Of a stretch of 64,000 nucleotides of DNA, positions 33,627 through 53,066 are shown piece by piece. A model generated the notes under the pieces. The model was not told the origin of the DNA. It was given only the letters and a program-made list of their open reading frames with translations, and searched no databases. Origin of the DNA: Pseudarthrobacter sp. L1SW (GTDB taxonomy: Bacteria > Actinomycetota > Actinomycetes > Actinomycetales > Micrococcaceae). The number at the start of each line of letters is the position of its first letter. Within the stretch, counting starts at the first letter, position 1. A program made the translations under genes and the position numbers. The DNA is taken from assembly GCF_020809045.1 (NCBI RefSeq), contig NZ_CP078079.1, positions 434,001 through 498,000 of the forward strand, written 5' to 3'.

Positions 33627-33633
33627 AGGAGGA

Positions 33634-33810: not shown

Positions 33811-33965
33811 GGCGTAATCCCTTCGGCTGGTGCCGGAGGCGCCCACGCCCCCGGTCATGCCTTCATATTAACCAGCGGCAGGACGCTTCAACAGTGCCTT
33901 TTCTGCAATCGCCGGCGCGGCCACGGGGGTCGGAGGCCTGGGTCTGGTGGGCCCAGGTCCTGAGG

Positions 33966-35798: not shown

Positions 35799-35932
35799 GG
35801 GGTGTCCTCTCGATTGGGCCTGAACCTGACAGGCCGGCTCCGCGATGGGCGGGGCCGGCCTGTCAGTGATGCTTATGTGCCTTGCGGTGCGCCTATTGCC
35901 CTGCGGGTGCAAAGGGCCAGTCAGGTAGTGGC

Positions 35933-38015: not shown

Positions 38016-38081
38016 CTTCGCTCTCTCTTTCCAAGAAGGCCGGTTGTTGATCAAGAACCAGCAATACTGGCCGTAAAATAA

Positions 38082-38093
38082 TAAGCATGATTA
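38082..38093. promoter_or_regulatory. TAAGC palindrome in the divergent LEA-like/coiled-coil promoter
   Basis: TAAGCATGATTA lies 67 bp before the LEA-like start (minus) and 67 bp before the coiled-coil gene (plus) in an AT-rich stretch. On the minus strand it is followed by TTATTATTTT, a possible -10. A weaker half repeat (TAAGTACCCTTG) is at 38105-38116. Confidence 0.55.
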
Positions 38094-38159
38094 CTAATAA
38101 AAGGTAAGTACCCTTGCTAAGCGAGTTGCAAAAGGTTCCGAAAGAGTCAGCCGGAAGGC

Positions 38160-38861
38160 GTGGGCCTGCCGGGCACATCGAAGTGGAAAGTGGTGGGTAG
38201 TTTGGAAACAGCTCCATGGGTTTGGGTGTTGGTTGCCATCGTTGTGGTGGTCCTGATTGTGCTGCTGGTGCTGGCCAGCGGGCGGCGCCGGAAGGCGATG
38301 CAGCAAAAGCGGGACGACGCACACCGGGAAAAAGCCGCTGAGATCCGCCGCGAGGCCGAAGTCCGGGAGCTCGACGCCCGTGAACGGGAAGCGAAGGCAA
38401 CACGGGCCAGGGCGGATGCGGAGCAGGCCCAGGTGGATGCGGCGCGGTTGCGCCAGCAGGCAGACCAGCAGGTGGCGGAGGCCAAGTCGCTCCGTGACGA
38501 CGTGAATGAGCGGACCCGCAAGGCGGACGAGCTTGACCCGGACGTCGCACCGGCCGCAGATGGCACGGGCGGCCGCCGGGACCGTACCAACCGCGACGGC
38601 GCCGGCCAGGCCAACGCCGGCACGGCCAGCCACGCCGACCGTGACGACGCCGGCCGTGCGGACCTTGACGACGGGCGCCACGCCCACCGGGAGGGCGCCG
38701 GCGGTGAGGGCGCCATGGCCGGTGGGACTGGCACTGCAGGAGGCCCGGCTGCCGGTGACGGAGCCCGTGGCGACGTCGACCGGGATGAGCGGCGTAATGA
38801 GGGCACCAATCCTGCCGGCGGCGGCCACGGGGACAGGGAGAATCCCCGCCCCGGCATCTAG
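38160..38861 (+). CDS. Membrane-anchored coiled-coil hypothetical protein
   Basis: Up to 233 residues. One N-terminal hydrophobic helix (about residues 19-39, WVWVLVAIVVVVLIVLLVL) is followed by a basic stop-transfer stretch and about 85 residues of strong heptad coiled coil rich in Arg/Glu/Ala (REAEVRELDAREREAKATRA). The last 100 residues are Gly/Asp/Arg/Ala-rich and disordered. No family is recognised. The start is uncertain: GTG at 38160 has GGAAGG too close, while TTG at 38202 or GTG at 38190 have better-placed purine runs. It is divergent from the LEA-like operon and shares its promoter region. Confidence 0.65.
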   Translation: MGLPGTSKWKVVGSLETAPWVWVLVAIVVVVLIVLLVLASGRRRKAMQQKRDDAHREKAAEIRREAEVRELDAREREAKATRARADAEQAQVDAARLRQQADQQVAEAKSLRDDVNERTRKADELDPDVAPAADGTGGRRDRTNRDGAGQANAGTASHADRDDAGRADLDDGRHAHREGAGGEGAMAGGTGTAGGPAAGDGARGDVDRDERRNEGTNPAGGGHGDRENPRPGI

Positions 38862-38878
38862 TCCGCGCGCGGCAGGAT

Positions 38879-39913
38879 CTACCTTGGTTTCAGGACGGGG
38901 GAGGGAGTGATTCCTTCCCCCGTTCCCATGCCCGCCAGCACCTCGGCGACGGCCTCGGTGGATGAGAACTTTGGCTCCCAGCCAAGAATCCGCCGTGCCC
39001 GGCTGGTATCCATGATGGGGGCACCGGCTGCCATCTCAATCCATCCCGAATCCGTGGGCTGGAGCCGCAGCCTCCATGCCGCGCCAACGATCTTGTGGAG
39101 CAGTCCCATGGGGATAGGCAGGATCCGTCGGGCGCCCAGGATGCGGGCGAGTTCCTGCGGTGTCAGGACGGGTTCTGCTGCGACATTGAAGGCTCCGGAG
39201 GCTCGCCGGTCAATAACGCGCCAATAGGCATCAGCCACATCGTCCGCATGGACCGCCTGGAAGATCAGGTCCTCGGGGGCCGGCAGGAGTGGTATCCGCA
39301 GCCTCCCCGGCAGGAGCCTTGGTATGAGTGGCCCCAGGAAATACCTTCCGATCTCGCTTCCGGCGTCGCGCTGGAAGATCAGGGCCGGGCGGAGCCTGGC
39401 CACCGGGACGCCCGGATGCGCTGCCATGAATGCGTCCAGGGCTTCTTCCTGCTCCGCCTTGTGCCGGCTGTAGTGTGAGCCCGGCATGCCGCGGGCGGGC
39501 CACGATTCGTCGGTCCGCCGGTCCTTGGGAGCCTTGCTGTAGGCGCCCACGGATGACGCGCAGACCACCTGTTTCACGCCCGCCCTCCCGGCCGCCGACA
39601 GGACGTTCCTGGTGCCGGTGACGTTGGTCCGGTACAGCTGCTCGAGGTCCCGGTTGGGCTGGATCTGCCACGCCAGGTGGACCACGGCGTCCACTCCTGC
39701 CAGCGCCGCGTCCAGCAGGGGCCGGTCGCTTTCCAGGCCCACGTCCAGCGTGTGCCACTCAACGCCTGAATAGGGCGCCCGGCTGGTGTCCGGGCGGCGC
39801 CTGCTGATCCCCGTCAACGTCAGGCTTCCCGGCTTTTCGGACAGGCGGGCCTGCAGCCTGCGCAACAGTGCCGTTCCCGCGTTACCGCTGGCTCCGGTGA
39901 TGGCGATGTGCAT
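38879..39913 (-). CDS. NAD-dependent epimerase/dehydratase (extended SDR)
   Basis: A 344-residue extended SDR. The Rossmann motif ITGASGNAGTALLRRL is at the N-terminus, VDAVVHLAWQ near residue 75, NVTGTRNVLSAA near 95, and the catalytic tyrosine in HYSRHKAEQEEAL near 147. The substrate domain follows. Similar to uncharacterised nucleotide-sugar or terpenoid epimerases; activity is not assigned. AAGGAG precedes the ATG at 39913. It is divergent to the sigma factor and the shared 145-bp spacer contains ATAAGCAGGCTTAT. Confidence 0.85.
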   Translation of the reverse strand: MHIAITGASGNAGTALLRRLQARLSEKPGSLTLTGISRRRPDTSRAPYSGVEWHTLDVGLESDRPLLDAALAGVDAVVHLAWQIQPNRDLEQLYRTNVTGTRNVLSAAGRAGVKQVVCASSVGAYSKAPKDRRTDESWPARGMPGSHYSRHKAEQEEALDAFMAAHPGVPVARLRPALIFQRDAGSEIGRYFLGPLIPRLLPGRLRIPLLPAPEDLIFQAVHADDVADAYWRVIDRRASGAFNVAAEPVLTPQELARILGARRILPIPMGLLHKIVGAAWRLRLQPTDSGWIEMAAGAPIMDTSRARRILGWEPKFSSTEAVAEVLAGMGTGEGITPSPVLKPR

Positions 39914-39983
39914 GGCAGGGCTCCTTGGCGTGGCCGGTCAGTACCGCTTACACACCGAGCCTATAACCGGGAAGGATTGTTTT

Positions 39984-39997
39984 ATAAGCAGGCTTAT
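39984..39997. promoter_or_regulatory. TAAGC palindrome upstream of the sigma factor and epimerase
   Basis: ATAAGCAGGCTTAT has perfect 6-bp arms ATAAGC and GCTTAT around AG. It lies 61 bp before the sigma factor ATG (40059) and 70 bp before the epimerase ATG (39913). This is the best-conserved copy in the window. Confidence 0.6.
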
Positions 39998-40058
39998 GAT
40001 TTCCTACTTCTAAGTCTTGCCGCAGGCTTTCGGACCCCGACCGAGGGAACCAACGACA

Positions 40059-41009
40059 ATGCCAGAATACTTTTCCGCACTTGCCGTGGATGCTACTCCT
40101 GTCCACCAGCAGCAGCCAGAACTCCCAAGGGACAGCCCTGCCAGCGCCCGGGCCGGGCGGCTGCGCCAGACCTTTGAAAACGACCTGGTCCTCGGCTACC
40201 TGGACCTCGCCGAGGCCCTGGCCGCCAGGTTCGAGGCCCGCGGGCGCGAACGCGCCGACCTGAACCAGGTGGCCTACCTTGGCCTGGTCAAGGCGGCCCG
40301 CGGCTTTGACCAGACCAAGGGCGAGAGTTTCCCCGCCTACGCGGCTCCCACCATTACCGGGGAGCTGAAGCGGTACCTTCGCGACCGTACCTGGGTGGTC
40401 AGGCCGCCCAGGCACATCCAGGACTTGCGCACCCGGATGTTCCGGGCCGAGCCGGAGCTGACCCAATCGCTGGGACGGAACCCCAGCGTGGCCGAACTGG
40501 CAGGGGTGCTCGATGAGGATCCCGCCGCAGTGCAGGAGGCCATCTCGGCGTCCAGCAGCATGCACCCCGACTCGCTCGACGCCGTCAACCCGCATTCGGA
40601 CGCGCCGTCCATCGGCGAGGTGCTGGCATGTCCAGAGACGCCGCTGGAACGGCTGGAGGAGCTGGCCTGCCTGCGTGACGCCATCCAGGACCTGGATACC
40701 GCGGACCGGGAACTCCTGTACCGCCGCTACTTCTGTGAAGAGACCCAGGTGCAGCTGGGGAAGCGGCTTGGCATGTCCCAGATGCAGGTTTCACGGCGCC
40801 TTGCGAAAGTCCTGGTGGAGCTCCAGCGCCGGCTTGAAGGCAGCTCGCTTGCGGGCTCATCGGATGAAGCACCGGCAAATGCCGGGCGGCAAGCAGGGGT
40901 GGCAACAGGATCCGGCAGGACCCTGCAGGCAGTGTGCGGGCAGGGGAACCAGGCCCCGGCCGGCAAGAATGCCACGCGCAGGGGCAGCGCCAGGGCCGGG
41001 AACAGGTGA
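40059..41009 (+). CDS. RNA polymerase sigma factor, SigB/SigF/SigG type (group 3)
   Basis: A 316-residue sigma-70 family factor without region 1.1. Region 2 includes RADLNQVAYLGLVKAARGFD and FPAYAAPTITGELKRYLRD (about residues 65-110). Region 3 includes LTQSLGRNPSVAELAGVL, and region 4 the helix-turn-helix ETQVQLGKRLGMSQMQVSRRLAK (about 228-250). It matches stress/sporulation-type sigma factors. No RsbW-type anti-sigma gene is adjacent, which is unusual. About 60 C-terminal residues beyond region 4 are Ala/Gly/Arg-rich. The ATG at 40059 has GAGGGA about 10 nt upstream. The TAAGC palindrome is upstream. Confidence 0.9.
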   Translation: MPEYFSALAVDATPVHQQQPELPRDSPASARAGRLRQTFENDLVLGYLDLAEALAARFEARGRERADLNQVAYLGLVKAARGFDQTKGESFPAYAAPTITGELKRYLRDRTWVVRPPRHIQDLRTRMFRAEPELTQSLGRNPSVAELAGVLDEDPAAVQEAISASSSMHPDSLDAVNPHSDAPSIGEVLACPETPLERLEELACLRDAIQDLDTADRELLYRRYFCEETQVQLGKRLGMSQMQVSRRLAKVLVELQRRLEGSSLAGSSDEAPANAGRQAGVATGSGRTLQAVCGQGNQAPAGKNATRRGSARAGNR

Positions 41010-41187
41010 CCTTCCAGCCCACTCCCGAGAACTGCCGCACACGGCCGCAAGCCAGTGCCGGAACGGGCATCAGTAGGCGCTGCCGCGCTATCTTGCCTGT
41101 TCAGGCGGATTGCGTGGGCGCGGTCCGGAAGGTGAGAAAACCGAACGGCCCTGTTTAGGAGCAGCAGCAGGGGGGAACAGGGAGGGT

Positions 41188-41724
41188 ATGGGAAGCTCCG
41201 TAACCTCCAAGCTCAGGGCTGTCCTGTTCGACCGGGACGGGACCCTGGTGGTCGATGTCCCCTACAACGGGAACCCCGACCTTGTCCGGCCAATGCCAGG
41301 CGCCAAAGCCGTGCTGGACGCCCTGCGGTCCGAAGGCATTGCCACCGGCGTGGTCAGCAACCAGTCAGGCATCGCCCGCGGCATGATCACTGCCGCCGAC
41401 GTGGCCAGTGTGAATGCCAGGGTGGACGAACTGCTGGGCCCCTTTGACGTGTGGGAAGTCTGTCCCCATGCCGAGCAGGACGGCTGCCTCTGCCGGAAGC
41501 CGGCGCCCGGCATGGTCCACAGTGCATGCCGGAGGCTCGGCATCGGGGAATCCGAGGCTGCACTGATCGGTGACATCGGCGCTGACGTCCGGGCCGCCGA
41601 AGCGGCGGGCGCCACCGGGGTGCTGGTCCCTACGCCGGTGACCCTTGCCGAAGAAGTGGCTGAAGCCCGCCTGGTGGCCCAGGACCTGGCAGGGGCCGTG
41701 CTCCTGCTGCAGGAGGGGCGGTAA
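41188..41724 (+). CDS. HAD-IIIA phosphatase, GmhB-like (heptose bisphosphate 7-phosphatase)
   Basis: A 178-residue HAD-IIIA protein. Motif I is VLFDRDGTLVVDVPYNG (catalytic Asp pair), motif II VVSNQSGIARG, the zinc loop CPHAEQDGCLCRKPAPGM contains the Cys/His ligands characteristic of GmhB and histidinol-phosphatase, and motif IV is LIGDIGADVRAA. Expected reaction: D-glycero-beta-D-manno-heptose 1,7-bisphosphate to the 1-phosphate. It opens the heptose cluster; GGGAGGG precedes the ATG at 41188. The next gene starts within its stop (TAATG). Confidence 0.87.
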   Translation: MGSSVTSKLRAVLFDRDGTLVVDVPYNGNPDLVRPMPGAKAVLDALRSEGIATGVVSNQSGIARGMITAADVASVNARVDELLGPFDVWEVCPHAEQDGCLCRKPAPGMVHSACRRLGIGESEAALIGDIGADVRAAEAAGATGVLVPTPVTLAEEVAEARLVAQDLAGAVLLLQEGR

Positions 41725-42812
41725 TGGGCCGCGTCCTGGTGGCGCGCCTGGACAGCATGGGAGACGTCCTGCTGGCCGGTCCTGCAGTCAGGGCCGTTGC
41801 CAACGGCAGGATCCCGGACGGCAGCAAGCCCAACCACGTGGTCCTGCTGTGCGGCAGGCAGGGGGAGGCTGCGGCAGGCGTGCTGCCGGGAGCCGCGGAG
41901 GTCTACAGCTGGGACAGCCCGTGGATCATGAACCCGGCCCCCAAAATGACCGGGCCGCACGCCGACAGGCTGATCGAATATGTCCGGAACTCCAGGATCA
42001 CTGAAGCCGTGATCCTCACGTCCTTCCACCAGTCCCCCCTGCCGCTGGCGCTGCTGCTGCGGCTGGCCGGCGTTGAGCGCATCACCGGCGCGTCCACCGA
42101 CTATGCGGGCTCCCTCCTGGACGTCCGGCTCAAGCCGGGGGAGGACTTCCCCGAGGACCAGCCCGAGGCGGAACGCGCGCTTGGCATCGCCGAGGCCGCA
42201 GGCTTCAGGCTCCCGGCCAGCGACGACGGCAAGCTCCACGTGGCGTCCGTGCCGGATGTCCGGGACCTGGTGGGCCAGGAGCCGTATGTGGTGGTCCACC
42301 CCGGCGCGGCCGTTCCCGCACGGGCCTGGCCGCCGCTCCACCACGCGGCCGCCGTCGAACTCCTCCAAGGTGCGGGGCACCGCGTGGTGGTGACGGGCGG
42401 TCCCGGGGAAACATCGCTGACCGCAACGGTGGCAGGGCCCTCGGCGCTGGACCTCGGGGGCCGGACGGACCTGCACACCCTGGCCGGCGTCATGGCCGGG
42501 GCCGAGGCGGTGGTCACCGGCAACACCGGTCCCGCACACCTCGCGGCGGCCGTGGGCACGCCCGTTGCCTGCCTCTTTTCGCCGGTGGTGCCCGCCATCC
42601 GCTGGGCACCGTACGGGGTCCCGCTGGAACTCCTCGGGGACCAGAACGCAGCCTGCCGGATGACCCGCGCCCGCGTCTGCCCGGTTCCGGGCCACCCCTG
42701 CCTGGACTCCGTGTCCCCCGAGGACGTGGTGGCGGCGGTGGAGCGCCTGATGGGCGGAGTGAGCTCCTTCAGTACCCACGTCAGCACCCGTAGAAAGGCC
42801 CGTAACAGATGA
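41724..42812 (+). CDS. Glycosyltransferase family 9 (heptosyltransferase homologue)
   Basis: A 362-residue GT9 protein with the WaaF/WaaC layout. The N-terminal RVLVARLDSMGDVLLAGPAVRA replaces the usual R-x-x-x-x-G-D-x-x-x-x-x-P. The C-terminal NDP-sugar half has VVVHPGAAVPARAWP, the mid HRVVVTGGPGE and VTGNTGPAHLAAAVGTPVACLF. GT9 enzymes use ADP-heptose, which agrees with the GmhA/GmhB/HldE genes in the same cluster. Its acceptor cannot be a classical LPS core in this Gram-positive. It is coupled to both neighbours (TAATG and ATGA overlaps). Confidence 0.88.
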   Translation: MGRVLVARLDSMGDVLLAGPAVRAVANGRIPDGSKPNHVVLLCGRQGEAAAGVLPGAAEVYSWDSPWIMNPAPKMTGPHADRLIEYVRNSRITEAVILTSFHQSPLPLALLLRLAGVERITGASTDYAGSLLDVRLKPGEDFPEDQPEAERALGIAEAAGFRLPASDDGKLHVASVPDVRDLVGQEPYVVVHPGAAVPARAWPPLHHAAAVELLQGAGHRVVVTGGPGETSLTATVAGPSALDLGGRTDLHTLAGVMAGAEAVVTGNTGPAHLAAAVGTPVACLFSPVVPAIRWAPYGVPLELLGDQNAACRMTRARVCPVPGHPCLDSVSPEDVVAAVERLMGGVSSFSTHVSTRRKARNR

Positions 42813-43843
42813 AAATCCTGCTCTGGCATGTCCACGGTTCCTGGACGGACGCCTTTGTGCGCGGCCGTCACGAGTACCTCCTTCCTGTCCTGCCAGGGGG
42901 CGGACCCTGGGGGCTTGGCCGTGCAGGCAGGGACTGGCCTGCGTCTGTGCGGGAGGTGGACCTCGCCTCGCTGGACGCGGCGGAGGTTGACGCCGTCGTC
43001 CTCCAACGCCCGCAAGAACTCGACGAAGTTGCCCGGCTGCTGGGCCGGCGGCCAGGCGCGGACCTTCCTGCCGTGTATGTGGAGCACAACACCCCCAAGG
43101 GAAATTTCCCCAATACCAGCCACCCGCTCGCGGACCAGACCAGCATCCCCCTGGTCCACGTGACGCACTTCAACAGGCTGGCCTGGGACAACGGCTCGGC
43201 ACCCAGCCTGGTGGTGGAGCACGGAATCCCGGACCCCGGACAGCTCTACACGGGGGAACTGCCCGAATTGGGGGTGGTGGTGAATGAACCCATCCGCCGC
43301 GGCCGCGTCACCGGAACGGACCTGTTCCCCGCCTTCGCTTCAGTGGCGCCGCTGCAGGTCTTCGGCATGCAGACCGAGGGCCTGGCCGCCGCCACCGGGA
43401 TCGCGGAGTCACGCCTGACCCCGCGGGGCGACCTGAAGACCCTGGAACTGCACCGTGAACTGGCCAAGTGCCGCGTGTACATCCACCCCATGCGCTGGAC
43501 CTCCCTGGGACTGTCCCTCCTGGAGGCCATGCACCTGGGCATGCCGGTGGTTGCCCTGGCCACCACCGAAGCGCCCCGCGCGGTGCCGCCGGAAGCCGGC
43601 GCCGTCTCCGCCGACATCGACGAACTGCTCCGCTGCGCGCGGCGGCTGGTGGCCAATCCGGAGGAAGCACGACGGCGGGGAGCCGCCGCCCGCGAGGCGG
43701 CACTGGAACGCTACGGCCTGGGTAAGTTCCACCACCGCTGGGACGAGATCCTGGCGGACCTCGGCAGCAAGTCCGGCCACCGCCACAACGAACCCCTGGA
43801 CGAGCGGATCCTCGTTCCGGCGCGGGAGAGGAAGACCCCATGA
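42809..43843 (+). CDS. GT-B glycosyltransferase (GT4-like)
   Basis: A 344-residue GT-B glycosyltransferase, somewhat short. The N-terminal [24 protein letters not shown] is a typical acceptor-binding start. The C-terminal nucleotide-sugar half has [31 protein letters not shown] (E-x7-E region, about residues 224-254). NDP-sugar unknown; an NDP-heptose donor is possible from context. It overlaps the genes on both sides by ATGA. No signal peptide or membrane helix is seen, so it acts on the cytoplasmic side. Confidence 0.82.
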
Positions 43844-45093
43844 GAATCTCGATGATTTCCGAGCACGCCAGCCCATTGGCGGCACTTGGCGGAGTGGACG
43901 CTGGCGGGCAGAACGTGCACGTCGCGGCGCTGTCCGAAGCCCTTGCCAAGCGGGGCCACCAGGTCACCGTGTACACCCGCAGGGATTCAACGGAGCTTCC
44001 CGCCAGGGTCCAGGTGGGCCGCCGCCTTGAGGTGGTCCATGTGGATGCAGGACCGGCACGCCACGTTCCCAAGGACGAACTGCTGCCCTTCATGGGCGAG
44101 CTGGCGGACGGCGTGGCCAAAGACTGGATCCAGCGGCCGCCGGACGTGGTGCACGGCCACTTCTGGATGTCCGGCGTGGCCGCCCTCGATGCAGCCAGGC
44201 GGCCCGATGCCGGGTACCGCGTCCCCGTCATCCAGACCTTCCACGCCCTTGGCACGGTCAAACGGCGGCACCAGGGCGCGGAGGACACCAGCCCGCAGGA
44301 ACGCCGCTGGCTTGAACCGGGTGTGGGACGCTCCGCGGACCGGATCATTGCCACCTGCTCGGACGAGGTGTTCGAGCTCAAGGCCATGGGTATCAGCACC
44401 GCCAAGATCTCCATCGCCCCCTGCGGCGTGGACCTGGGCTTCTTCTCCGCCGAGGGTCCCGTGGATGCGCGGGCGCGCCGGCACCGCATCCTCTCGGTAG
44501 GCCGCCTGGTGCCGCGCAAGGGCGTGGATTTGGTGATCAGGGCGCTGCCGTACCTCCGCGAGGCAGGATTCGACGACGTCGAGCTCCTGATCGTGGGCGG
44601 CGGCGGGGACTCCGGGGCGCTCGAGGCCGATCCCGAGGTGCGCCGCCTGATGGACCTTGCCGCCGAATTGGGCGTCTCGGACCAGGTGAGGCTGCAGGGC
44701 CAGGTGCCGCGGGAGGCGATGCCGGGGATTTTCCGCAGTGCCGATGCCGTGGTGTGCGCCCCCTGGTACGAGCCCTTCGGCATCGTTCCGCTGGAAGCCA
44801 TGGCCTGCGGCGTCCCCGTGGTGGCTGCGGCCGTGGGCGGCCTCCGTGACACCGTGGTGGACCACGGGACCGGGCTGCACGTGCCGCCGCGCGACCCCGA
44901 GGCCATCGCGTCCGCCCTGGCCACGCTGCTGGATAACCCCACACTGCGGGCAGAGCTCGGAAACGCGGGCAGGCTGCGGGCCCGGACCAGGTACTCGTGG
45001 GACCGGGTGGCTGCCGAAACCGAAAAGGCCTACCAGCAGGCTGTGGCGGGGGCCCCTGCCGGCGTTGTCCCGATGGAAGGAGCGGCACTGTGA
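43840..45093 (+). CDS. Glycosyltransferase family 4
   Basis: A 417-residue GT4 enzyme. [28 protein letters not shown] at the N-terminus resembles sucrose-synthase/MshA-type GT4 proteins. The donor site has [20 protein letters not shown] and the E-x7-E motif in [21 protein letters not shown] (about residues 307-327). It would transfer a nucleotide-activated sugar with retention. It is coupled by ATGA to the upstream GT and by GTGA to the GmhA-like gene. Its similarity to MshA (glycosyl-inositol) is noted, but the heptose context favours a glycan role. Confidence 0.87.
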
Positions 45094-45800
45094 CTGCCGA
45101 ATGGTCCCTTCGTGAAACCGACCTGCGCACTTTGGCCGCCACGCCGGCCCTCCCCGCGGTCCTGCCGGGTTCCGGCTTTGTGGACCCGGCCAGCTCGGAC
45201 ATCGTGCTGACGCACCTGGACAATGTGCTGCCGGCGCTGGATTCGCTGCGCAGCCAGTCCAGCCGCCTTGCGGCCTGGGGAGTGGAGCTTGCCCAGCGCC
45301 TGCTGCGCGGGCAGCGGCTGCTCGCAGCCGGGAACGGCGGCTCGGCGGCGGAGGCGCAGCACCTGACTGCCGAGCTGGTGGGCAGGTTCGACGGCGAACG
45401 CGTCCCGTTCTCCGCGATCTCGCTGCACGCTGAGTCGTCCGCCGTCACGGCCATCGCCAACGATTACGGCTTCGATGACGTCTTCGCGCGGCAGGTGCGC
45501 GCGCACGGCCGGTCCGGCGACGTGCTGATGCTGCTGTCAACGAGCGGCAAGAGCCCCAACCTGCTGCGGGCGGCGGAGGTTGCCGCAAAGCTGAACATCA
45601 CCACCTGGGCGCTGACCGGCGTCGGGCCCAACCCCCTGGCCGACGCCTGCGATGAAGCCGTGATGATCGACGCCCTCAACGCCAACGCCCAGGAAGGACA
45701 CCTCATCGCCCTGCACGCGATGTGCCGTGCGTTCGACCTGGAAGTGGGACGGCGCAGCGCCCCCGACGCAGGCCTGTCATTGCGGGGAGGCCGGCCATGA
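45090..45800 (+). CDS. SIS-domain phosphoheptose isomerase (GmhA-like)
   Basis: A 236-residue SIS protein. The phosphosugar-binding [22 protein letters not shown] (about residues 78-99) is the GmhA hallmark, with His in QHL and Glu in [17 protein letters not shown] (about 149) and the C-terminal [10 protein letters not shown] helix (His in the active site of GmhA) follow. About 45 extra N-terminal residues are not in E. coli GmhA. Reaction: sedoheptulose-7-phosphate to D-glycero-D-manno-heptose-7-phosphate. GTG start at 45090 with GGAAGGAG upstream; ATGA overlap with HldE-like 1. Confidence 0.88.
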
Positions 45801-47341
45801 GGATCGTGGTGGTGGGTGACGTGATGCTGGATGTGGACCTGTCCGGTGACGCCACCCGGCTCAGCCCCGATGCGCCCGTGCCCGTGGTGGATGTTTCCGG
45901 GGTGAAGCGGCGTGCCGGCGGTGCGGGCCTGGTAGCCCGGATGCTCGCCCAGGACGGCTGGCCCGTGACGCTGGTGACGGTCCTGGGCGATGACGACGCC
46001 GGGCGGCAGCTGGAACAGCACCTCGCCGGAGTGCGGCTGGTCTCAGGTCCCAGCGGCCACGCCTCGCCCGTCAAGACCCGGGTCAGGGCCGGATCCCACC
46101 CGGTGGTCCGTTTCGACCAGGGCTGCGGGAAGGCCCCCATTCCGGACGTCACGCCGGCCATGCTCCGCGCCGTCGAGAAGGCCGGAGTGATCATCGTGGC
46201 CGATTACGGCAGGGGCCTGGCGGCGAATCCGCAGCTGCGGGACCTCCTGGCCCGGCTGGCCGGGACCATCCCCATCATCTGGGACCCGCATCCCGCCGGC
46301 GCGGCCCCCGTACCGGGCGTTGCCGTAGTGACCCCCAACCTCGCCGAAGCGAGCAAGGCGGCGCAGGCGCTCGCCGGGGAACGCGGCGGCGGGCAGGCCG
46401 CGGCGTCCGCCGGCGCTGGCCGGGACGTTCACGGCGTGGCCGGGGATCCGCCGGCGCAGGAGCCGCAGGATGAGGCCGTCCAGGCCGGCCGGATCCTGCT
46501 GGAGCACTGGCAAAGCCGTGCCGTGCTGGTGACCAAGGGTGAACAGGGCGCGGTGCTGCTGCGGGAGGGCCGGACTTCCCCGGATGCCGTCCCGGCGCCC
46601 CGGGTGGAAGCGGGCGATCCCTGCGGTGCGGGTGACCGGCTCGCTGCCAGCCTGGCCGTCCACCTCCTTGCCGGCAGGGAGCTCGGGGAGGCCGCCAGGC
46701 TCGCAGTCCATGATGCCGCCGACTTCCTGGCCAACGGGGGAGTATCTGCCTTTCCCGACTCCGAAGCGGACCCCGAAACAGGCCCCGGGACAGGCCGCGA
46801 GGCAGAGGCTGCTTCCGGCGCGGGCGCCGGTGCCGCCACTGCCGGTCCGCTGAGGCCCCCCACCCCGGTTGGCGGCAAGCGCCGCATCAGCGAACCGCTG
46901 CTGCTGGCCCGCGTGGTGCGGGACAACGGCGGCAAGGTGGTGGCCACCGGCGGTTGCTTCGACCTCCTGCATGCCGGCCATGTCCGGTCCCTTGCGGCCG
47001 CCCGCGAGCTGGGGGACTGCCTGATCGTCTGCCTCAACTCCGATGATTCGGTACGCCGGCTCAAGGGGCCGGAGCGTCCCATCATCGGCCAGCAGGACAG
47101 GGCCGAACTGCTGCTGGCCATGGAATGCGTGGACGCCGTGATGATCTTCGATGAAGACACCCCGGAAGCGGCCCTGGAACGGCTTCGCCCGGACATCTGG
47201 GTCAAGGGCGGTGACTACAAGGGCGCCCGCCTCCCGGAGGCCGACCTCGTGGAGAAGTGGGGCGGTCGGTGCCTCACCGTCCCCTACCACCCCGCCCGTT
47301 CCACCACCGGACTGGCCGATGCCCTCGCCAAGGTGAGCTGA
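45797..47341 (+). CDS. Bifunctional heptose-7-phosphate kinase/heptose-1-phosphate nucleotidyltransferase, HldE-like copy 1
   Basis: 514 residues. The N-terminal PfkB kinase domain starts [18 protein letters not shown], includes SPDAPVPVVDV, and ends with the catalytic GDPCGAGDRLAASLAV (about residue 275). The C-terminal RfaE2 nucleotidyltransferase starts ATGGCFDLLHAGHVRSLAAA (about residue 384) and has the SDDSVRRLKGPERPI and VKGGDYKG motifs. Compared with copy 2 it has an Ala/Gly-rich insertion (about 195-230) and a Glu/Gly/Pro-rich linker (about 318-360). Together these produce NDP-heptose. It ends the tightly coupled first block of six genes. Confidence 0.9.
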   Translation: MRIVVVGDVMLDVDLSGDATRLSPDAPVPVVDVSGVKRRAGGAGLVARMLAQDGWPVTLVTVLGDDDAGRQLEQHLAGVRLVSGPSGHASPVKTRVRAGSHPVVRFDQGCGKAPIPDVTPAMLRAVEKAGVIIVADYGRGLAANPQLRDLLARLAGTIPIIWDPHPAGAAPVPGVAVVTPNLAEASKAAQALAGERGGGQAAASAGAGRDVHGVAGDPPAQEPQDEAVQAGRILLEHWQSRAVLVTKGEQGAVLLREGRTSPDAVPAPRVEAGDPCGAGDRLAASLAVHLLAGRELGEAARLAVHDAADFLANGGVSAFPDSEADPETGPGTGREAEAASGAGAGAATAGPLRPPTPVGGKRRISEPLLLARVVRDNGGKVVATGGCFDLLHAGHVRSLAAARELGDCLIVCLNSDDSVRRLKGPERPIIGQQDRAELLLAMECVDAVMIFDEDTPEAALERLRPDIWVKGGDYKGARLPEADLVEKWGGRCLTVPYHPARSTTGLADALAKVS

Positions 47342-47404
47342 CTCGCCAGGTGAGCCAGCCGCCCACCCGCCCCAAAGTTTGTATTTCCCATTGAAAGGAA
47401 CACC

Positions 47405-48121
47405 ATGACTGCAGAAGTAAATGTGCCTGCCTCGCAGACCCCCGGCCGCGTGCTCGTAACGGGAGGTGCCTCCGGACTGGGGGCCGCCGTCGTCGACGCC
47501 GTCCTCAAGGCGGGCGGCACCCCGGTGGTGCTGGACCGGGACATCAGCAGCGTCTCCAACGTCAAGGCCTTCGAAGTGGACGTGGCGGACCGCGCCGCCG
47601 TGGAGGCCGCAGTAAAGGAAGCCGCCGAATCGCTTGGCGGGCTGGAAGCCGTGGTCACCGCAGCCGGCATCGACCGCTGCGGCAAGCTCGCCGACGTCGA
47701 AGCCACCGAGTGGGAAAAGGTCATCGGCGTGAACCTGATGGGCACGGTGTCCGTGGTGCGGGCGGCCCTGCCCTACCTCAAGGCCAGCCACGGCCGGGTG
47801 GTGACCGTTGCTTCCACCCTGGGCAAGCGCGCCGTTGCCGATGCGACGGCCTACTGCGCCTCGAAGTTCGGCGTGGTGGGCTTCAGCCACGCGCTCGCCG
47901 CCGAGACGGGGGGAGAGATCGGCGTGACCACCATGATCCCCGGCGGCATGAAAACGCGGTTCTTCGATGACCGCACGGAGCAGTACAAGCCGCAGGACGA
48001 TTCGCGCCTCAACGACCCCGCCAACACCGCGCAGGCCATCCTGTTCGCGTTGAACCAGCCCACCGGCTGCGAGGTCCGCGAAATGCTGATCTGCCACGAG
48101 GAAGAGGGCTCCTGGCCCTAA
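47405..48121 (+). CDS. Classical SDR oxidoreductase
   Basis: A 238-residue classical short-chain dehydrogenase. VTGGASGLGAAVVDAVLKAG is the cofactor motif, VVTAAGID near residue 83, the catalytic Ser in TVASTLGKRA near 138, and YCASKFGVVGF near 151. It is too short to be the extended-SDR epimerase HldD, so it probably oxidises or reduces a sugar hydroxyl or a related alcohol. It is 63 bp after HldE copy 1, with AAAGGA before the ATG, and 41 bp before the aldehyde dehydrogenase. Confidence 0.86.
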   Translation: MTAEVNVPASQTPGRVLVTGGASGLGAAVVDAVLKAGGTPVVLDRDISSVSNVKAFEVDVADRAAVEAAVKEAAESLGGLEAVVTAAGIDRCGKLADVEATEWEKVIGVNLMGTVSVVRAALPYLKASHGRVVTVASTLGKRAVADATAYCASKFGVVGFSHALAAETGGEIGVTTMIPGGMKTRFFDDRTEQYKPQDDSRLNDPANTAQAILFALNQPTGCEVREMLICHEEEGSWP

Positions 48122-48162
48122 AGGCAACAGTCCACCAGACCGGAAACGACGGGAGGAACACC

Positions 48163-49599
48163 ATGCCCACCACTGCCATCGAAACAACAACGGACCAGGA
48201 ATTGGCTGAGCGCGGCGGCATCACCATCCGCAACCCGCGCACCGGGGAGGTCCTCTGGACCGTGCCGGAGGCCGGGCCGGATGCCGTGGCCCGTGCCGTG
48301 GAGGTAGCCCGCAGCGCGTCCCCGGACTGGGCTTCCACTGCCGCAGCCCAGCGGGGTGCCGCACTCAAGGCGGCCGCGCGCGCGCTCGATGCGGCCGCCC
48401 AGGAACTGGCCGGGCTGAATGCCAGCGAAACGGGCCGGCCGGTGGACGAATCGCTGGCGGGGATTGCCGCCGGAGTGTCCACCCTGGAGCAGTATGCCGA
48501 GCTCGGCCCCATCCACCGCGGCCTCAGCCTGCGGGGAAATGCGCTGGCCTCGGACTACACGGTGGCGGAGCCGCGGGGAGTGGCCGCGCTCCTCACCCCG
48601 TGGAATGATCCCGTGGCCGTGGCCTGCGGGTTGATCGGCGCCGCGCTGGTCACCGGCAATACCGTGATCCACAAACCCAGCGAGCGCTGCCCGCGCCTCG
48701 GCGAAGCCCTCGGGGAGGTCCTGGCGCCGGCCTTCCCGCCGGGTGTCTTCCAGACGCTGTCAGGCGGCGCGGGCGTCGGCGCGCTCCTTGCCGAGTCCGA
48801 GGTGGACGTTATCGCGCACGTGGGCTCAAGCGCTTCCGGTGCCCGCATTGCCAGGGCCGGAGCGCTCACCGGTGCCCACGTCATCCGGGAAAACGGCGGA
48901 AACGATCCGCTGCTGGTGGACCGGGACGTGGATCCCGTGTGGGCAGCCGAGCAGGCCGCGATCGGCGCCTTCAGCAACAGCGGGCAGATCTGCGTGGCGG
49001 TTGAACGGATCTACGTCCACGAGGCCATCGCAGCCGAATTCTGCGCCGCCCTGGAGGCAGAGGCCGCGCTCCGCAACGGCCACGGCACGGTTGCCCCGCT
49101 GGTGGACGGGCGGATGCGCGAGGCCGTCCACGCACACGTGGCCGACGCACTGCAGCAGGGCGCCCGCGCCGTGGAGGGCGGCGCCCTTCCCGACGGTCCG
49201 GGCTCCTTCTATCCCGCCACGGTGCTGACCGGATGCACCGACACAATGGAGGTGATGACCGAGGAAACCTTCGGGCCCGTCGCGCCGGTGCAGGTGGTGA
49301 AAACGTTCGACGACGGCCTGCGGCTCGCGTGCAGCGGCAGGTATGGCCTCGCTGCCACAGTCCTGTCCGGCAATATTGCCCACATCCAGCAGGCGGTGGC
49401 CGCCCTTCCCGTGGGCACGGTGAAGATCAACGAGGTGTTTGGCGGTGCCCCCGGCGGCGCCGCCCAACCGCGGGGTGCGAGCGGTGCCGGTTTCGGCTAC
49501 GGCCCGGAACTCCTGGATGAGTTCAGCCGGGTGAAAGTGGTGCACATCGCGGCACCGCCAGCCCAGGCAACACAGCAAGAGGGGGAGGACCGGCCATGA
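48163..49599 (+). CDS. Aldehyde dehydrogenase family protein
   Basis: A 478-residue NAD(P)-dependent ALDH. The general base Glu is in the ENGGNDPLLV region (about residue 246), the catalytic Cys in SNSGQICVAVERIYVHEA (about residue 279), and TEETFGPVAPV near 365. It oxidises an aldehyde to a carboxylate. In this cluster it could make a uronic-type or modified heptose, or detoxify an intermediate. The ribosome site GGGAGGAA precedes the ATG, and its stop overlaps HldE copy 2 by ATGA. Confidence 0.87.
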   Translation: MPTTAIETTTDQELAERGGITIRNPRTGEVLWTVPEAGPDAVARAVEVARSASPDWASTAAAQRGAALKAAARALDAAAQELAGLNASETGRPVDESLAGIAAGVSTLEQYAELGPIHRGLSLRGNALASDYTVAEPRGVAALLTPWNDPVAVACGLIGAALVTGNTVIHKPSERCPRLGEALGEVLAPAFPPGVFQTLSGGAGVGALLAESEVDVIAHVGSSASGARIARAGALTGAHVIRENGGNDPLLVDRDVDPVWAAEQAAIGAFSNSGQICVAVERIYVHEAIAAEFCAALEAEAALRNGHGTVAPLVDGRMREAVHAHVADALQQGARAVEGGALPDGPGSFYPATVLTGCTDTMEVMTEETFGPVAPVQVVKTFDDGLRLACSGRYGLAATVLSGNIAHIQQAVAALPVGTVKINEVFGGAPGGAAQPRGASGAGFGYGPELLDEFSRVKVVHIAAPPAQATQQEGEDRP

Positions 49600-51134
49600 G
49601 CATCACGCCCGAGGCAGGGGACCTGTCGCAGCAGCGGGCGCTCGCCGAATGGCTGCCCGGGCGGCTGGCGGCGGAGCAGCCGGCCATCCTGGTGCTCGGC
49701 GACGTCATGCTGGACGGGTGGTGGAGCGGCAGCATCGAGCGGCTCTGCCGTGAGGCCCCGGCTCCGGTGGTGGACATCCAGTCCCGCGCGTCCGTACCCG
49801 GCGGGGCCGCCAACACCGCCATGAACCTGGCCGCCCTGGGGGCGCGGGTGTCCGTTGCCGGCATCATCGGAACGGACGACGCCGGGGTGGACCTCCGGAG
49901 CCAGCTGGTGGCGGCGGGGATCGACGTCACCTACCTGCTGGACCACCCGGACATGGTCACCACCACCAAGATCCGGATCAGCAGCGGCGGCCAGGTGATG
50001 CTCCGCATCGATGACGCGGCCAAGTCCGTGCCCGCCGAAGCGCTGGCGGAGCTGGCCGCCTCGGTGCGCGCCGCCGTCGAGCACCAGGACTCCGTGATGG
50101 TGTGCGATTACGGCACCGGCGTCCTGGCGGACCCCGTCCGCCGCGGCCTGGAGGACGCCCTGGCGGGCAAGGACCGCGGGGACGCCGGCGGGCGGCCCCT
50201 GCTGGTGGTCGATTCGCACGACCCCCGGCCCTGGGCCGCGCTGCATCCCGACCTGGTGACCCCCAACGCGCAGGAAACGGCGCGGATGCTGGATGTGCGG
50301 CTTCCCGAGGGGCAGGACAGGGTGGCCGAGGTGGGCAGGCACGCGGATGCGCTGCTGGCGGCCACGGGAGCAGGAGCCGTGGTGGTCACGCTGGACCGCG
50401 ACGGCACCGTCCTGCTGAGGCCGGACGGCGTCACGCACCGGACGTGGGCGCGCCCGGCCGCCGAAAAGCAGGCGTCGGGAGCAGGCGACACTTTTGTGGC
50501 CGCCCTGACCCTGGCGCGTTCGGCCGGCCTGCCGCTGACGGCGAGCCTGGACCTGGCGCAGTCCGCTGCGGACGTGGTGGTGCACCAGCCCGGCACGTCG
50601 GTCTGCAGCACGGCACAGCTCAGCCGGTACCTGAAGGCCTTCGCGGACACCGCCCTGGGTGCGGACGAACTGGAACGGCAGCTGGAAGTGCACCGGGCGG
50701 AGGGGCAGCGCATCGTCCTGACCAACGGCTGCTTCGATGTGCTGCACAGCGGGCACACCCGGTACCTAAACCAGGCCAAACAGCTGGGCGACATCCTGGT
50801 GGTGGCCCTGAACAGTGACGGCTCCGTCCGGCGGCTCAAGGGCGCGGGACGGCCCATCAACGGGGTCGCGGACCGGGCCGCCGTGGTGGCGGCACTGAGC
50901 TGCGTGGACTACGTGACCGTCTTCGATACCCCCACCGCGGCCCCGCTGATCCGGCAGCTCCGGCCCGAGGTGTACGCCAAGGGCGGGGACTACACCCCGG
51001 AGATGCTGGCCGAAACCCCGGCCGTGGAGGAGTACGGCGGCCGGGTGGCCATCCTGGATTACGTGGCGGAGCGTTCCACCACTGCCGTGGTGAACCGGAT
51101 CCGCGAAGGTGAAGGGGCGGTGCAGACCAACTAG
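49596..51134 (+). CDS. hldE: Bifunctional heptose-7-phosphate kinase/heptose-1-phosphate nucleotidyltransferase, HldE-like copy 2
   Basis: 512 residues and closer to canonical HldE than copy 1. The kinase half has LVLGDVMLDGWWSGSIERL, EAPAPVVDIQSRASVPGGAANTAMNLAALG and the catalytic KQASGAGDTFVAALTLAR (about residue 290). The nucleotidyltransferase half has LTNGCFDVLHSGHTRYLNQA (about residue 375), NSDGSVRRLKGAGRPIN and AKGGDYTPEMLAET. Both active sites look intact. With GmhA and GmhB it completes an NDP-D-glycero-beta-D-manno-heptose pathway. A second intact copy in one cluster is unusual. ATGA-coupled to the ALDH. Confidence 0.92.
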   Translation: MSITPEAGDLSQQRALAEWLPGRLAAEQPAILVLGDVMLDGWWSGSIERLCREAPAPVVDIQSRASVPGGAANTAMNLAALGARVSVAGIIGTDDAGVDLRSQLVAAGIDVTYLLDHPDMVTTTKIRISSGGQVMLRIDDAAKSVPAEALAELAASVRAAVEHQDSVMVCDYGTGVLADPVRRGLEDALAGKDRGDAGGRPLLVVDSHDPRPWAALHPDLVTPNAQETARMLDVRLPEGQDRVAEVGRHADALLAATGAGAVVVTLDRDGTVLLRPDGVTHRTWARPAAEKQASGAGDTFVAALTLARSAGLPLTASLDLAQSAADVVVHQPGTSVCSTAQLSRYLKAFADTALGADELERQLEVHRAEGQRIVLTNGCFDVLHSGHTRYLNQAKQLGDILVVALNSDGSVRRLKGAGRPINGVADRAAVVAALSCVDYVTVFDTPTAAPLIRQLRPEVYAKGGDYTPEMLAETPAVEEYGGRVAILDYVAERSTTAVVNRIREGEGAVQTN

Positions 51135-51181
51135 GGTTGGATACTCGAACTGGTTGGACGGACTGAAGCGGGGCACGGGTC

Positions 51182-52120
51182 ATGGCGAAGCGCGGAAAAC
51201 CCGGGGGCCGCGGCAGCCGTCCGGCGGCGGGCGTGGTGGAAGTGCCCAAAGGAACCCGGCCGAACGGTCCGGTTGAGGGTGTGTACTACATCGACACCGG
51301 TGACTGCGAGCTGATCGCGGACCAGGACAACTCCACCGGCTGGCTCCTGAAGATCAACGGCGTCATGAGCTCGCACATCGACCTCGCGGACCCGCTGTTC
51401 CTGGACTTCGAGTACATGCGATGGATGGCCGCGCTCATCGAGTCCCGCTGGCCGCCGTCGGGCGTTTCCTCCGGTGCCGCGCAGAAGCCTGAAGCCCCAA
51501 AGCTGCGCGGCCTGCACCTGGGCGGCGGCGCCTGCTCCCTGGCCCGCTACTTCCACGCCGTCTACCCGGACGCCCGGCAGGTGGTGGTGGAACTGGACGG
51601 CAAGCTGGCGGAGTACGTGCGCGGCTGGTTCGACCTCCCCAAGGCGCCGCTGCTGCGCCTTCGCGTGGGGGAGGCCCGGCACGTGACCGAAACCCTGACG
51701 GCGGAGACCCGAGACTTCATCATCCGGGACGTTTTTGCCGGCGCGGTGACCCCGCGTCCGCTGACCACCGCCGAGTTCAACCAGCACGTCCGCCGCGTCC
51801 TTGCTCCCGGCGGGATGTACGTGGTGAACTCCGGCGACGCGCCGGACCTGAAGAACGCCCGGGAGGATGCCGCCACCATCGCGGCCTCCTTCAGGCACAC
51901 CGTCATCATCGCAGACCCGGCCATGCTCAAGGGCCGGCGCTACGGCAACATGGTGATGGCCGGCAGCGACACACCCTTCGGCGATGACCCGAAGCTCGCC
52001 CGGCGCCTCCTGGGCGGCGCCGTCCCGGCGCACCTGTGGGACGACGCGCAGGTCCGGGCGTTTGCGGCCGGAGCCCCGGTCCGCCACGACCCGCCGGTAA
52101 CCCCGTCGACTGCTCCATAG
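51182..52120 (+). CDS. Spermidine synthase-like methyltransferase-fold protein
   Basis: A 312-residue protein with the spermidine-synthase fold: LRGLHLGGGACSLARYFHAVYP is the cofactor-binding loop, followed by VVVELDGKL, RDFIIRDVFAGAV in the gate region and LAPGGMYVVNSGD. The polyamine-specific Asp/Tyr set is not evident, so the activity may be a methyl transfer or unknown. A basic Gly/Arg-rich N-terminus (first 18 residues) is present. It is 47 bp after HldE copy 2 on the same strand, so it may be co-transcribed. A palindrome lies directly after the stop. Confidence 0.8.
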   Translation: MAKRGKPGGRGSRPAAGVVEVPKGTRPNGPVEGVYYIDTGDCELIADQDNSTGWLLKINGVMSSHIDLADPLFLDFEYMRWMAALIESRWPPSGVSSGAAQKPEAPKLRGLHLGGGACSLARYFHAVYPDARQVVVELDGKLAEYVRGWFDLPKAPLLRLRVGEARHVTETLTAETRDFIIRDVFAGAVTPRPLTTAEFNQHVRRVLAPGGMYVVNSGDAPDLKNAREDAATIAASFRHTVIIADPAMLKGRRYGNMVMAGSDTPFGDDPKLARRLLGGAVPAHLWDDAQVRAFAAGAPVRHDPPVTPSTAP

Positions 52121-52122
52121 GG

Positions 52123-52146
52123 GTCGTTTTCGCCCTCCTAAACGAC
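52123..52146. repeat. Short palindrome between convergent genes (GTCGTTT core)
   Basis: GTCGTTT (52123-52129) and AAACGAC (52140-52146) are separated by 10 nt. The element fits exactly between the two convergent stops at 52120 and 52149 and shares its core with the palindromes at 13252-13317 and 62289-62348. It is a plausible bidirectional terminator. Confidence 0.6.
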
Positions 52147-52148
52147 AG

Positions 52149-53066
52149 CTACGAAACAGTGGATGAGGTCTTTCCCCTCCCCAGGAGCTTTTCCCGGTGC
52201 GCGGCCACCTGTTCCCGGAGCGCATGGACAACTGCCGCCACGGCAGGCCGGCGCAGCGAGTCCGGCCTCAGCACCATCCAGTAGGGCAGCAGTTCGGCGA
52301 TTTCGGTGGGCAGGAGGCGGACCAGGTCCTCATGGAGGTCGCCCATGAAGCAGGGCAGGAAACCAATCCCCGCTCCGGCGCGCGTTGCTTCCACGTGGAC
52401 AAAGACGTTGGTGGAGGTCAGCCCGTCCCGCATCCCCGGCACCAGCCTGCGCGGCGCGTCGAGGTCGTCCACCTGCAGCATCGAGTCCACGAAATAGACC
52501 AGCGGGTGCCCGTTGAGTTCAGCCACGCTGGCGGGGGTCCCGTGCTCCGCGAGGTACGCCCGCGAGGCGTACATCCCCAGCATGTAGTCGCCCAGCCTCA
52601 CCGCTTCGGCCCGGTGCACCTGCGGTTCACCCACCACCACTTCAATGTCCAGGCCCGAGCGCTGTTGCAGCGCCCGCCGGGTCATGGTCACCACTTCCAC
52701 GCTCAGCCCCGGGTGGTTCCGCCGCAGCCTCGCCACGGCGGGAGCGGCAATGTAGGCGCTGAACCCGTCCGTCGCGGTCATGCGGACGACGCCGGTAATG
52801 GGGTCCGGTGCCTTGCCGGCAGGTCCCAGCGTGCCCACCGCCGCCTCCACCTGTTCGGCCACGCGCACCGCCTGGGCGCCGAGGTCGGTCAGCTCCCAGC
52901 CTCCCGCTGCCCGGGCCAGCACCCGGCCGCCCAGCGACTTCTCCAGGGCGGCTATCCGGCGCGAAACGGTGGTGTGGTTCAGTCCCAAGGACTGCGCCGC
53001 CGTCGTGAATTTTGCTGACCGCGAGACGGCCAGCAGGACCAGCAGGTCATCCGGGTTCGTATCCAT
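52149..53066 (-). CDS. LysR-family transcriptional regulator
   Basis: A 305-residue LysR protein. The DNA-binding region is DDLLVLLAVSRSAKFTTAAQSLGLNHTTVSRRIAALEKSLGG (about residues 6-47), with a substrate-binding domain from about residue 90. The ATG at 53066 is used because the family starts here; an earlier in-frame start lies inside the promoter. It is divergent from the MHS transporter (132 bp) and the spacer holds a CGCAGA-N3-TCTGCG palindrome. It probably activates the transporter and the 3-hydroxybutyrate-dehydrogenase-like gene behind it. Confidence 0.88.
   Translation of the reverse strand: MDTNPDDLLVLLAVSRSAKFTTAAQSLGLNHTTVSRRIAALEKSLGGRVLARAAGGWELTDLGAQAVRVAEQVEAAVGTLGPAGKAPDPITGVVRMTATDGFSAYIAAPAVARLRRNHPGLSVEVVTMTRRALQQRSGLDIEVVVGEPQVHRAEAVRLGDYMLGMYASRAYLAEHGTPASVAELNGHPLVYFVDSMLQVDDLDAPRRLVPGMRDGLTSTNVFVHVEATRAGAGIGFLPCFMGDLHEDLVRLLPTEIAELLPYWMVLRPDSLRRPAVAAVVHALREQVAAHREKLLGRGKTSSTVS

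What the first reader, a model, noticed from the sequence alone, without database searches (positions are those of the whole stretch)
41188..51134. Nine-gene heptose cluster with three glycosyltransferases in a Gram-positive actinobacterium
The sequence shows GmhB-, GmhA- and two HldE-like enzymes together with a GT9 heptosyltransferase homologue, two other glycosyltransferases, an SDR and an aldehyde dehydrogenase. Six genes are joined by ATGA, GTGA or TAATG overlaps. These families normally make ADP-heptose for LPS, which this organism should lack. No flippase, polymerase or HldD-type epimerase is in the block, so the product may be a D,D-heptose-containing glycolipid, cell-surface glycan, glycoprotein or small metabolite. 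I know no described pathway with exactly this gene set.
Basis: partly seen in the sequence, partly recalled or inferred. Interest (0 to 1): 0.75.

Follow-up and report, generated by a model that had tools for sequence, protein, structure and literature searches.

The report
Heptose cell-envelope glycan gene cluster
Nine adjacent genes in this actinobacterium, six of which match in order the vancomycin-induced cwg operon of Streptomyces, are predicted to make an activated seven-carbon sugar and, with three partner genes found elsewhere in the genome, would likely build it into a cell-surface glycan, in a kind of bacterium not expected to have the lipopolysaccharide where such sugars usually occur.

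Summary
In detail: nine co-directional genes at 41188-51134 encode GmhB, a GT9, two GT4-type transferases, GmhA, two HldE-type kinase/nucleotidyltransferases, an SDR and an ALDH; six joints overlap. No HldD passes its cut-off in the 4.1 Mb genome, so D,D-heptose is the predicted sugar. [quoted passage not shown] Nor is it complete: two more GT9 genes (one overlapping pair) lie at 2.01 Mb and a GT2 at 0.23 Mb. Relatives keep these inside the cluster, and among 37 genus genomes both GT9s occur in exactly the 25 that have HldE1. A SigB/F-type sigma factor gene lies beside gmhB in 20 of 20 same-order loci with enough upstream sequence and in 0 of 23 from other orders. Best reading: a cwg-type NDP-D,D-heptose envelope-glycan pathway with an added ALDH-HldE2 module. 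Chemistry, product and regulation are inferred; no determined cwg product appeared in the papers I searched. New variant of a known kind.

The parts
41188..41724 (+). GmhB-type HAD phosphatase
   Evidence: PRK08942 109 bits (cut-off 178), TIGR00213 66 (cut-off 149.6); DRDGT and CPH..CxCRK motifs; nearest solved: HAD hydrolase and GmhB; 55% to the cwg GmhB
41724..42812 (+). GT9 (heptosyltransferase superfamily)
   Evidence: PF01075 78 bits over cut-off; WaaC/WaaF-type models under cut-off; Asn where WaaF has Asp in its DSG motif; 60% to the cwg GT9
42809..43843 (+). GT4-type GT-B glycosyltransferase
43840..45093 (+). GT4 glycosyltransferase, MshA-like but not MshA
   Evidence: TIGR03449 257.8 bits, cut-off 462.5; a separate MshA over the cut-off lies at 2.83 Mb; 55% to the cwg protein
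45090..45800 (+). GmhA-type phosphoheptose isomerase (SIS domain)
   Evidence: TIGR00441 141.6 bits, cut-off 209.45; 15 of the 16 solved matches are phosphoheptose isomerases or DiaA; 58% to the cwg protein
45797..47341 (+). HldE1, kinase/nucleotidyltransferase
   Evidence: TIGR02199 over cut-off (184.7), 0.3 bits under it (181.2 of 181.5); Arg before STT; 61% to the cwg HldE over the NT domain
47405..48121 (+). classical SDR, substrate unknown
   Evidence: PF00106; 90-97% identical in the nearest loci; not found in the cwg operon of L162
48163..49599 (+). aldehyde dehydrogenase
   Evidence: PF00171 343 bits; directly before HldE2 in 48 of 80 loci
49596..51134 (+). HldE2, second kinase/nucleotidyltransferase
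   Evidence: TIGR02199 190.8 bits, over cut-off 181.5; clade separate from HldE1
40017..41009 (+). SigB/SigF-type sigma factor gene beside the cluster
   Evidence: TIGR02980 208.6 bits, cut-off 234.35; adjacent in 20 of 20 same-order loci with at least 1.5 kb upstream, 0 of 23 others
38879..39913 (-). NAD-dependent epimerase/dehydratase, possible accessory
   Evidence: PF01370; directly after HldE2 in 5 loci and beyond the sigma gene in 7
51182..52120 (+). spermidine-synthase-like protein next to HldE2, membership doubtful
   Evidence: NF037959 63.5 bits; in 13 of 80 loci

Best explanation
[quoted passage not shown] Predicted steps: GmhA turns sedoheptulose 7-phosphate into D,D-heptose 7-phosphate; an HldE kinase domain makes the 1,7-bisphosphate; GmhB removes the 7-phosphate; an HldE nucleotidyltransferase domain makes NDP-heptose. 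With no HldD over its cut-off the sugar should stay D,D. Three GT9 enzymes (one here, two encoded by an overlapping pair at 2.01 Mb) would add heptoses; the two GT4-type enzymes and an unlinked GT2 would make the other linkages; SDR and ALDH would oxidise a sugar or side chain; export would use an unlinked flippase. In Streptomyces the orthologous operon is induced by vancomycin, partly through SigE; here the neighbouring SigB/F-type sigma factor would tie the pathway to stress. Shown: gene content, order, conservation, co-occurrence, orthology to cwg. Inferred: every chemical step, the product, its location, the regulation.
For: Family scans. Six of nine genes collinear at 55-61% with the operon behind the exact cwg promoter printed in PMC6767563; the promoter lies 147 bases before the first gene, as in the paper's table. 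cwg is a vancomycin-induced SigE target predicted to make a cell wall glycan (PMC6767563, passages); cwgH is listed as a phosphoheptose isomerase (PMC5839063) and cwgE called a putative heptosyl transferase (PMC5882110). Core collinear in 52 of 99 loci. Genus profile: HldE1 in 25 of 37 genomes, GT9x and GT9y in exactly the same 25, although GT9x is on another contig in 4 of the 25 and over 300 kb away in 11; GT2 in 17 of the 25 and 0 of 12. GmhA alignment keeps the region of the catalytic residues (residue roles recalled).
Against: No chemistry. GmhA, GmhB and the GT9s score under the strict NCBIfam equivalog cut-offs. The GT9 has Asn where WaaF has Asp in its DSG motif, conserved in 64 of 72, so its donor may differ. 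No SigB-type or SigE-type promoter was found in front of gmhB. No carbamoyltransferase match in the own genome (no positive control), so the product must differ from that of cwg in part. The genus profile is not phylogenetically independent. The cluster is patchy: GT9 orthologue in 39 of 396 phylum genomes, HldE1 missing from 12 of 37 genus genomes.
Confidence: 0.66

Rival explanations
1. The cluster makes a soluble small molecule or secondary metabolite carrying heptose, as in septacidin biosynthesis, and not an envelope glycan.
For: NDP-heptose feeds septacidin in Streptomyces (PMC11461863). No export gene was recognised among the nine. SDR and ALDH could tailor a small molecule.
Against: The orthologous operon belongs to an envelope-stress regulon. 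No PKS or NRPS family appeared among the genes scanned (the whole flank was not scanned). The core recurs across the phylum.
Confidence: 0.14
2. It heptosylates proteins: GT9-type enzymes transfer heptose from NDP-heptose directly to secreted or cytosolic proteins.
For: Protein heptosylation from ADP-heptose is known for TibC (PMC4358343, passages). GT9x has a conserved Cys-rich segment that recalls the TibC iron-finger in spacing only (my reading).
Against: Five or six transferases fit an oligosaccharide better than single-sugar protein marking. The GT9s match LPS heptosyltransferase models; no autotransporter-heptosyltransferase model was listed.
Confidence: 0.08
3. The enzymes act on another sugar: the GmhA/HldE/GmhB relatives have been recruited for a different phosphorylated sugar.
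For: Below-cut-off scores for GmhA, GmhB and GT9; two diverged HldE clades; Asn for Asp in the GT9.
Against: All four activities of one known route are encoded together, and both HldE nucleotidyltransferase domains pass the curated cut-off.
Confidence: 0.1

Closest known systems
cwg operon (SCO6179-SCO6190) of Streptomyces coelicolor, SigE target, putative cell-wall-glycan operon
   Same: GmhB, GT9, GT, GT4, GmhA, HldE1 in the same order at 55-61% identity; a second GT9 type (GT9y, 47%) that the window's genome keeps elsewhere
   Different: The operon read in L162 also has an epimerase, a carbamoyltransferase and three GT2-like genes; no SDR, ALDH or second HldE was found in it; no SigE-type promoter in front of the window's gmhB; no carbamoyltransferase match in the own genome
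ADP-heptose pathway of LPS bacteria (GmhA, HldE, GmhB, HldD, WaaC/F)
   Same: The four activities that lead to NDP-D,D-heptose and GT9 transferases
   Different: No HldD over the cut-off; GT9s under the WaaC/WaaF/WaaQ-type cut-offs; two HldE proteins
Septacidin biosynthesis in Streptomyces
   Same: Actinobacterial use of NDP-heptose (PMC11461863)
   Different: An antibiotic pathway; its genes were not compared here

Membership tests
NDP-heptose biosynthesis (GmhA-HldE-GmhB route) | Heptose 1-phosphate nucleotidyltransferase domain over the curated cut-off | tested here: met
   TIGR02199 over cut-off for both HldE proteins; HldE1 is 0.3 bits under
NDP-heptose biosynthesis (GmhA-HldE-GmhB route) | GmhA and GmhB over equivalog cut-offs | tested here: not met
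   GmhA 141.6 of 209.45; GmhB 66.1 of 149.6 and 109 of 178; motifs are kept, so filed as works-like
NDP-heptose biosynthesis (GmhA-HldE-GmhB route) | Enzymatic activity on sedoheptulose 7-phosphate and heptose phosphates | not testable with these tools
   none
L,D-heptose (HldD) branch | ADP-heptose 6-epimerase over its cut-off in the genome | tested here: not met
   best 91.3 of 274.6 bits
cwg operon | Collinear GmhB-GT9-GT-GT4-GmhA-HldE block | tested here: met
   six genes at 55-61%; 52 of 99 loci
cwg operon | Epimerase, carbamoyltransferase and GT2 genes at the operon's ends | tested here: not met
   not in the block; no carbamoyltransferase match in the genome (no positive control); one GT2 related to that of relatives lies at 0.23 Mb
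cwg operon | SigE promoter and vancomycin induction | tested here: inconclusive
   no SigE-type pattern in front of gmhB, by a loose consensus; induction not testable here
STTR5 promiscuous heptose nucleotidyltransferases, (F/L)XXGRSTT | Arg at position 5 within the full motif | tested here: inconclusive
   Arg present in both window proteins and in 64 of 69 HldE1 rows (74 rows, 5 gapped), 35 of 83 HldE2 rows; positions 1 and 4 differ (Tyr; Ala or Glu)
LPS heptosyltransferase I/II/III | TIGR02193/02195/02201 cut-offs | tested here: not met
   48-55 bits of 135-185 for the window GT9; 48-70 bits for the own GT9x and GT9y
MshA (mycothiol) | TIGR03449 cut-off | tested here: not met
   257.8 of 462.5; the genome's MshA is at 2.83 Mb with 510 bits

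The most novel reading that the evidence does not exclude
Actinobacteria in many lineages assemble a D,D-heptose oligosaccharide in their Gram-positive envelope, a monoderm counterpart of the LPS inner core, built by three dedicated GT9 heptosyltransferases from NDP-heptoses made by two HldE enzymes of different nucleotide preference, and switched on by envelope stress through different sigma factors in different orders.
Probability: 0.38. Interest if true: 0.78.

Novelty: new variant of a known kind. Interest (0 to 1): 0.53.

Why it matters
The cwg operon is a standard target of the vancomycin-induced SigE response of Streptomyces, yet the papers I saw call its product only a putative or predicted cell wall glycan. 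The comparison here says which genes belong together (GmhA, GmhB, HldE1, three GT9 types, two GT4-type enzymes, usually an SDR, and in many genomes ALDH, HldE2 and a GT2), predicts D,D-heptose as the sugar, and points to Pseudarthrobacter-like hosts in which the product could be isolated. If true, heptose, usually read as a Gram-negative sugar and an innate-immunity signal, is also an envelope sugar of many Gram-positive bacteria, and the long-open question of what cwg makes becomes directly testable.

Tried and rejected
Promoters: no SigB-type pattern in the window between 39501 and 41250; matches in 4 of 21 relatives (L023, L055, L079, L090), in L079 and L090 just in front of gmhB. A loose SigE-type pattern had 2 matches in the whole window, one of them in 38000-53000, inside gmhA at 45459. 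The regulation stays inferred. The exact cwg promoter was absent from the 155 loci held and was found by a genus-wide search. GT4 as MshA: rejected. The neighbouring NAD epimerase as cwgA: 26% over 257 residues, left open. ALDH against solved structures: nothing at E<=1e-60, too strict a threshold to mean anything. ORF calls in relatives picked antisense frames for some families, so I went over to tblastn. One search used a wrong frame for HldE1, corrected. The GmhA C-terminal pattern was badly written (0 of 76); one search is used instead. Rows dropped: two HldE1 loci as too short; the five HldE1 loci gapped at the STT motif and two short ones. One L155 protein was entered under both labels, the only break between the two clades. 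One search used 30 of 46 loci with a usable start, plus the window. Literature searches (one library) listed no paper that I recognised as giving a cwg product or heptose in Arthrobacter envelopes. Hong et al. 2002, the founding cwg paper, was not looked up or read; I know it only as cited.
Full report
What is there. Family scans give GmhB, GT9, a weakly matched GT4-type transferase, a GT4 of MshA type, GmhA, HldE, SDR, ALDH and a second HldE. Six of the eight joints overlap. Both HldE proteins keep the kinase GAGD and nucleotidyltransferase HxGH motifs, and they are the only two TIGR02199 matches in the genome, both over the cut-off (in one search HldE1 falls 0.3 bits short). GmhA, GmhB and the GT9 score clearly but under the NCBIfam equivalog cut-offs. 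Their solved relatives are phosphoheptose isomerases, HAD phosphatases including GmhB, and heptosyltransferases. The weakly matched GT was modelled (pLDDT 87, alignment of 31 sequences) and matches GT4-type GT-B enzymes such as BshA, a methylmannose-polysaccharide mannosyltransferase and TarM. No HldD passes its cut-off in the genome.

Whom it resembles. The best HldE2 hits are 88-93% identical; those with names are Arthrobacter and Pseudarthrobacter (120 of 5198 listed). I fetched 80 named loci by HldE2 (capped at 80) and 19 unnamed stretches by GT9. The core gmhB-GT9-GT-GT4-gmhA-hldE1 is contiguous and collinear in 52 of these 99, with the SDR next in 49. The sample was chosen through cluster genes and many loci are cut short. 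A less biased figure: the GT9 has a match at E<=1e-60 in 39 of 396 genomes drawn across the phylum, 26 of 245 genera. The cluster is broad but patchy.

The known relative. S. coelicolor has a 12-gene cwg operon, SCO6179-6190, predicted to make a cell wall glycan, vancomycin-induced and partly SigE-dependent (PMC6767563, passages); its first gene is also activated by salt (PMC13011467, passages). PMC5839063 lists cwgH as a putative phosphoheptose isomerase and cwgI as a bifunctional synthase/transferase (passages); PMC5882110 calls cwgE a putative heptosyl transferase (passage). To test orthology and not just names, I searched 295 genomes of the genus of G372 for the core of the cwg promoter printed in PMC6767563: one exact match, six within two mismatches. 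In the exact-match genome the promoter ends 147 bases before the first gene, the distance in the paper's table. By sequence the operon then reads epimerase, carbamoyltransferase, GT2, GmhB, GT9, GT, GT4, GmhA, HldE, a second GT9, GT2, GT2. The GmhB-to-GT9y stretch was matched by tblastn. The two first types were scanned in the related locus L139. The GT2-like genes were named by eye. Six genes match the window in order at 55-61% identity (the last figure is the HldE nucleotidyltransferase domain), and GT9y matches at 47% a type that this genome keeps elsewhere. No SDR, ALDH or second HldE was found there.

The missing parts. Relatives carry two more GT9 genes (x, mostly between SDR and ALDH or HldE2; y, beside the sigma factor gene or after the SDR or HldE) and a GT2 after HldE2. 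The window's genome has both GT9 types as one overlapping pair at C1:2010275-2012388, 65% and 66% identical to those of locus L034, and a GT2 at C1:230265-231113, 61% identical to that of L045. Of 37 genomes in the genus sample, HldE1 is present in 25. GT9x and GT9y are present in exactly those 25, though GT9x lies on another contig in 4 of the 25 and over 300 kb away in 11. GT2 is in 17 of the 25 and in none of the other 12. Outside the genus the same cut-off found GT9x in 0 and GT9y in 2 of 22 genomes. Shared ancestry means these are not independent events.

Two modules. HldE1 and HldE2 form two separate clades (the single exception is one protein entered under both labels). Among the 80 named loci ALDH sits directly before HldE2 in 48, GT9x lies within 4.5 kb in 61 and GT2 within 4 kb in 42. 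Loci such as L063, L074, L078, L084 and L085 show ALDH, HldE2 and GT2 without the first module in the flank held. The Arg that marks nucleotide-promiscuous heptose nucleotidyltransferases (PMC11461863, part 1 of 2; PMC11573728, passages) is in 64 of 69 HldE1 rows with a letter there, while HldE2 has Arg in 35 and His in 37 of 83. The rest of that motif is only partly met (Tyr at position 1, Ala or Glu at position 4 in the window). The prediction is that HldE1 can use more than ATP and that HldE2 may differ.

Regulation. A SigB/F-family sigma factor gene lies beside gmhB in the window (40017-41009; TIGR02980 208.6 of 234.35 bits) and in 20 of 20 same-order loci with at least 1.5 kb upstream; in 0 of 23 loci of other orders (orders of named loci families and my knowledge, of unnamed ones). 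Neither a SigB-type nor a SigE-type promoter was seen in front of gmhB in the window, so this is a neighbourhood argument only. Two lineages may have tied the same pathway to different stress sigma factors; that is inference.

How it most likely works. GmhA, HldE kinase, GmhB and HldE nucleotidyltransferase are the four activities of the known NDP-heptose route. With no HldD over the cut-off the sugar should be D,D. Three GT9s, two GT4-type enzymes and the GT2 would then build an oligosaccharide. SDR and ALDH would oxidise a sugar or side chain; order and substrate are unknown. None of the nine hit a membrane transport family in the scans shown, so export should come from elsewhere. An envelope glycan is favoured over a free metabolite because the orthologous operon belongs to an envelope-stress regulon and the gene set recurs over the phylum.

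Limits. No chemistry was done. The GT9 carries Asn where WaaF has Asp in its DSG motif, a change kept in 64 of 72 rows, which could mean another donor. No carbamoyltransferase like that of cwg was found in the own genome (no positive control), so the products should differ in part. I recognised no determined cwg product in ten literature searches, and I did not read the founding paper.

Noticed in passing
38879-39913 (-): An extended-SDR epimerase gene stays near the cluster in different arrangements: beyond the sigma gene in 7 loci and the window, directly after HldE2 in 5 loci (L035, L036, L038, L040, L041), and within the fetched flank in 6 others. It may be an accessory sugar-modifying enzyme.
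   Followed up: partly
51182-52120 (+): Spermidine-synthase-like gene directly after HldE2 in 13 of 80 loci, all near the window's species group.
   Followed up: no
33064-38054: Upstream lie a ferritin-family (Dps-like by eye) gene, a BrkB-family membrane protein, a DUF3618 gene and a Holin-X-family gene, a set that looks like general-stress genes near the sigma factor.
   Followed up: no
L136:7276-8421 (own genome C1:2010275-2011420): GT9x carries a conserved Cys-rich segment (CxxC, then a third Cys followed by His) near its C-terminus that recalls, by spacing only, the iron-finger of the protein heptosyltransferase TibC.
   Followed up: no
L089, L094-L097, L099-L102 (Microbispora, Nonomuraea): HldE2 stands without gmhA, gmhB or HldE1 in the fetched flank, with GT9x nearby in all but L089; L094 and L095 add GT4- and GT9y-like genes, L096 a GT2. 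Possibly a smaller heptosylation unit.
   Followed up: no
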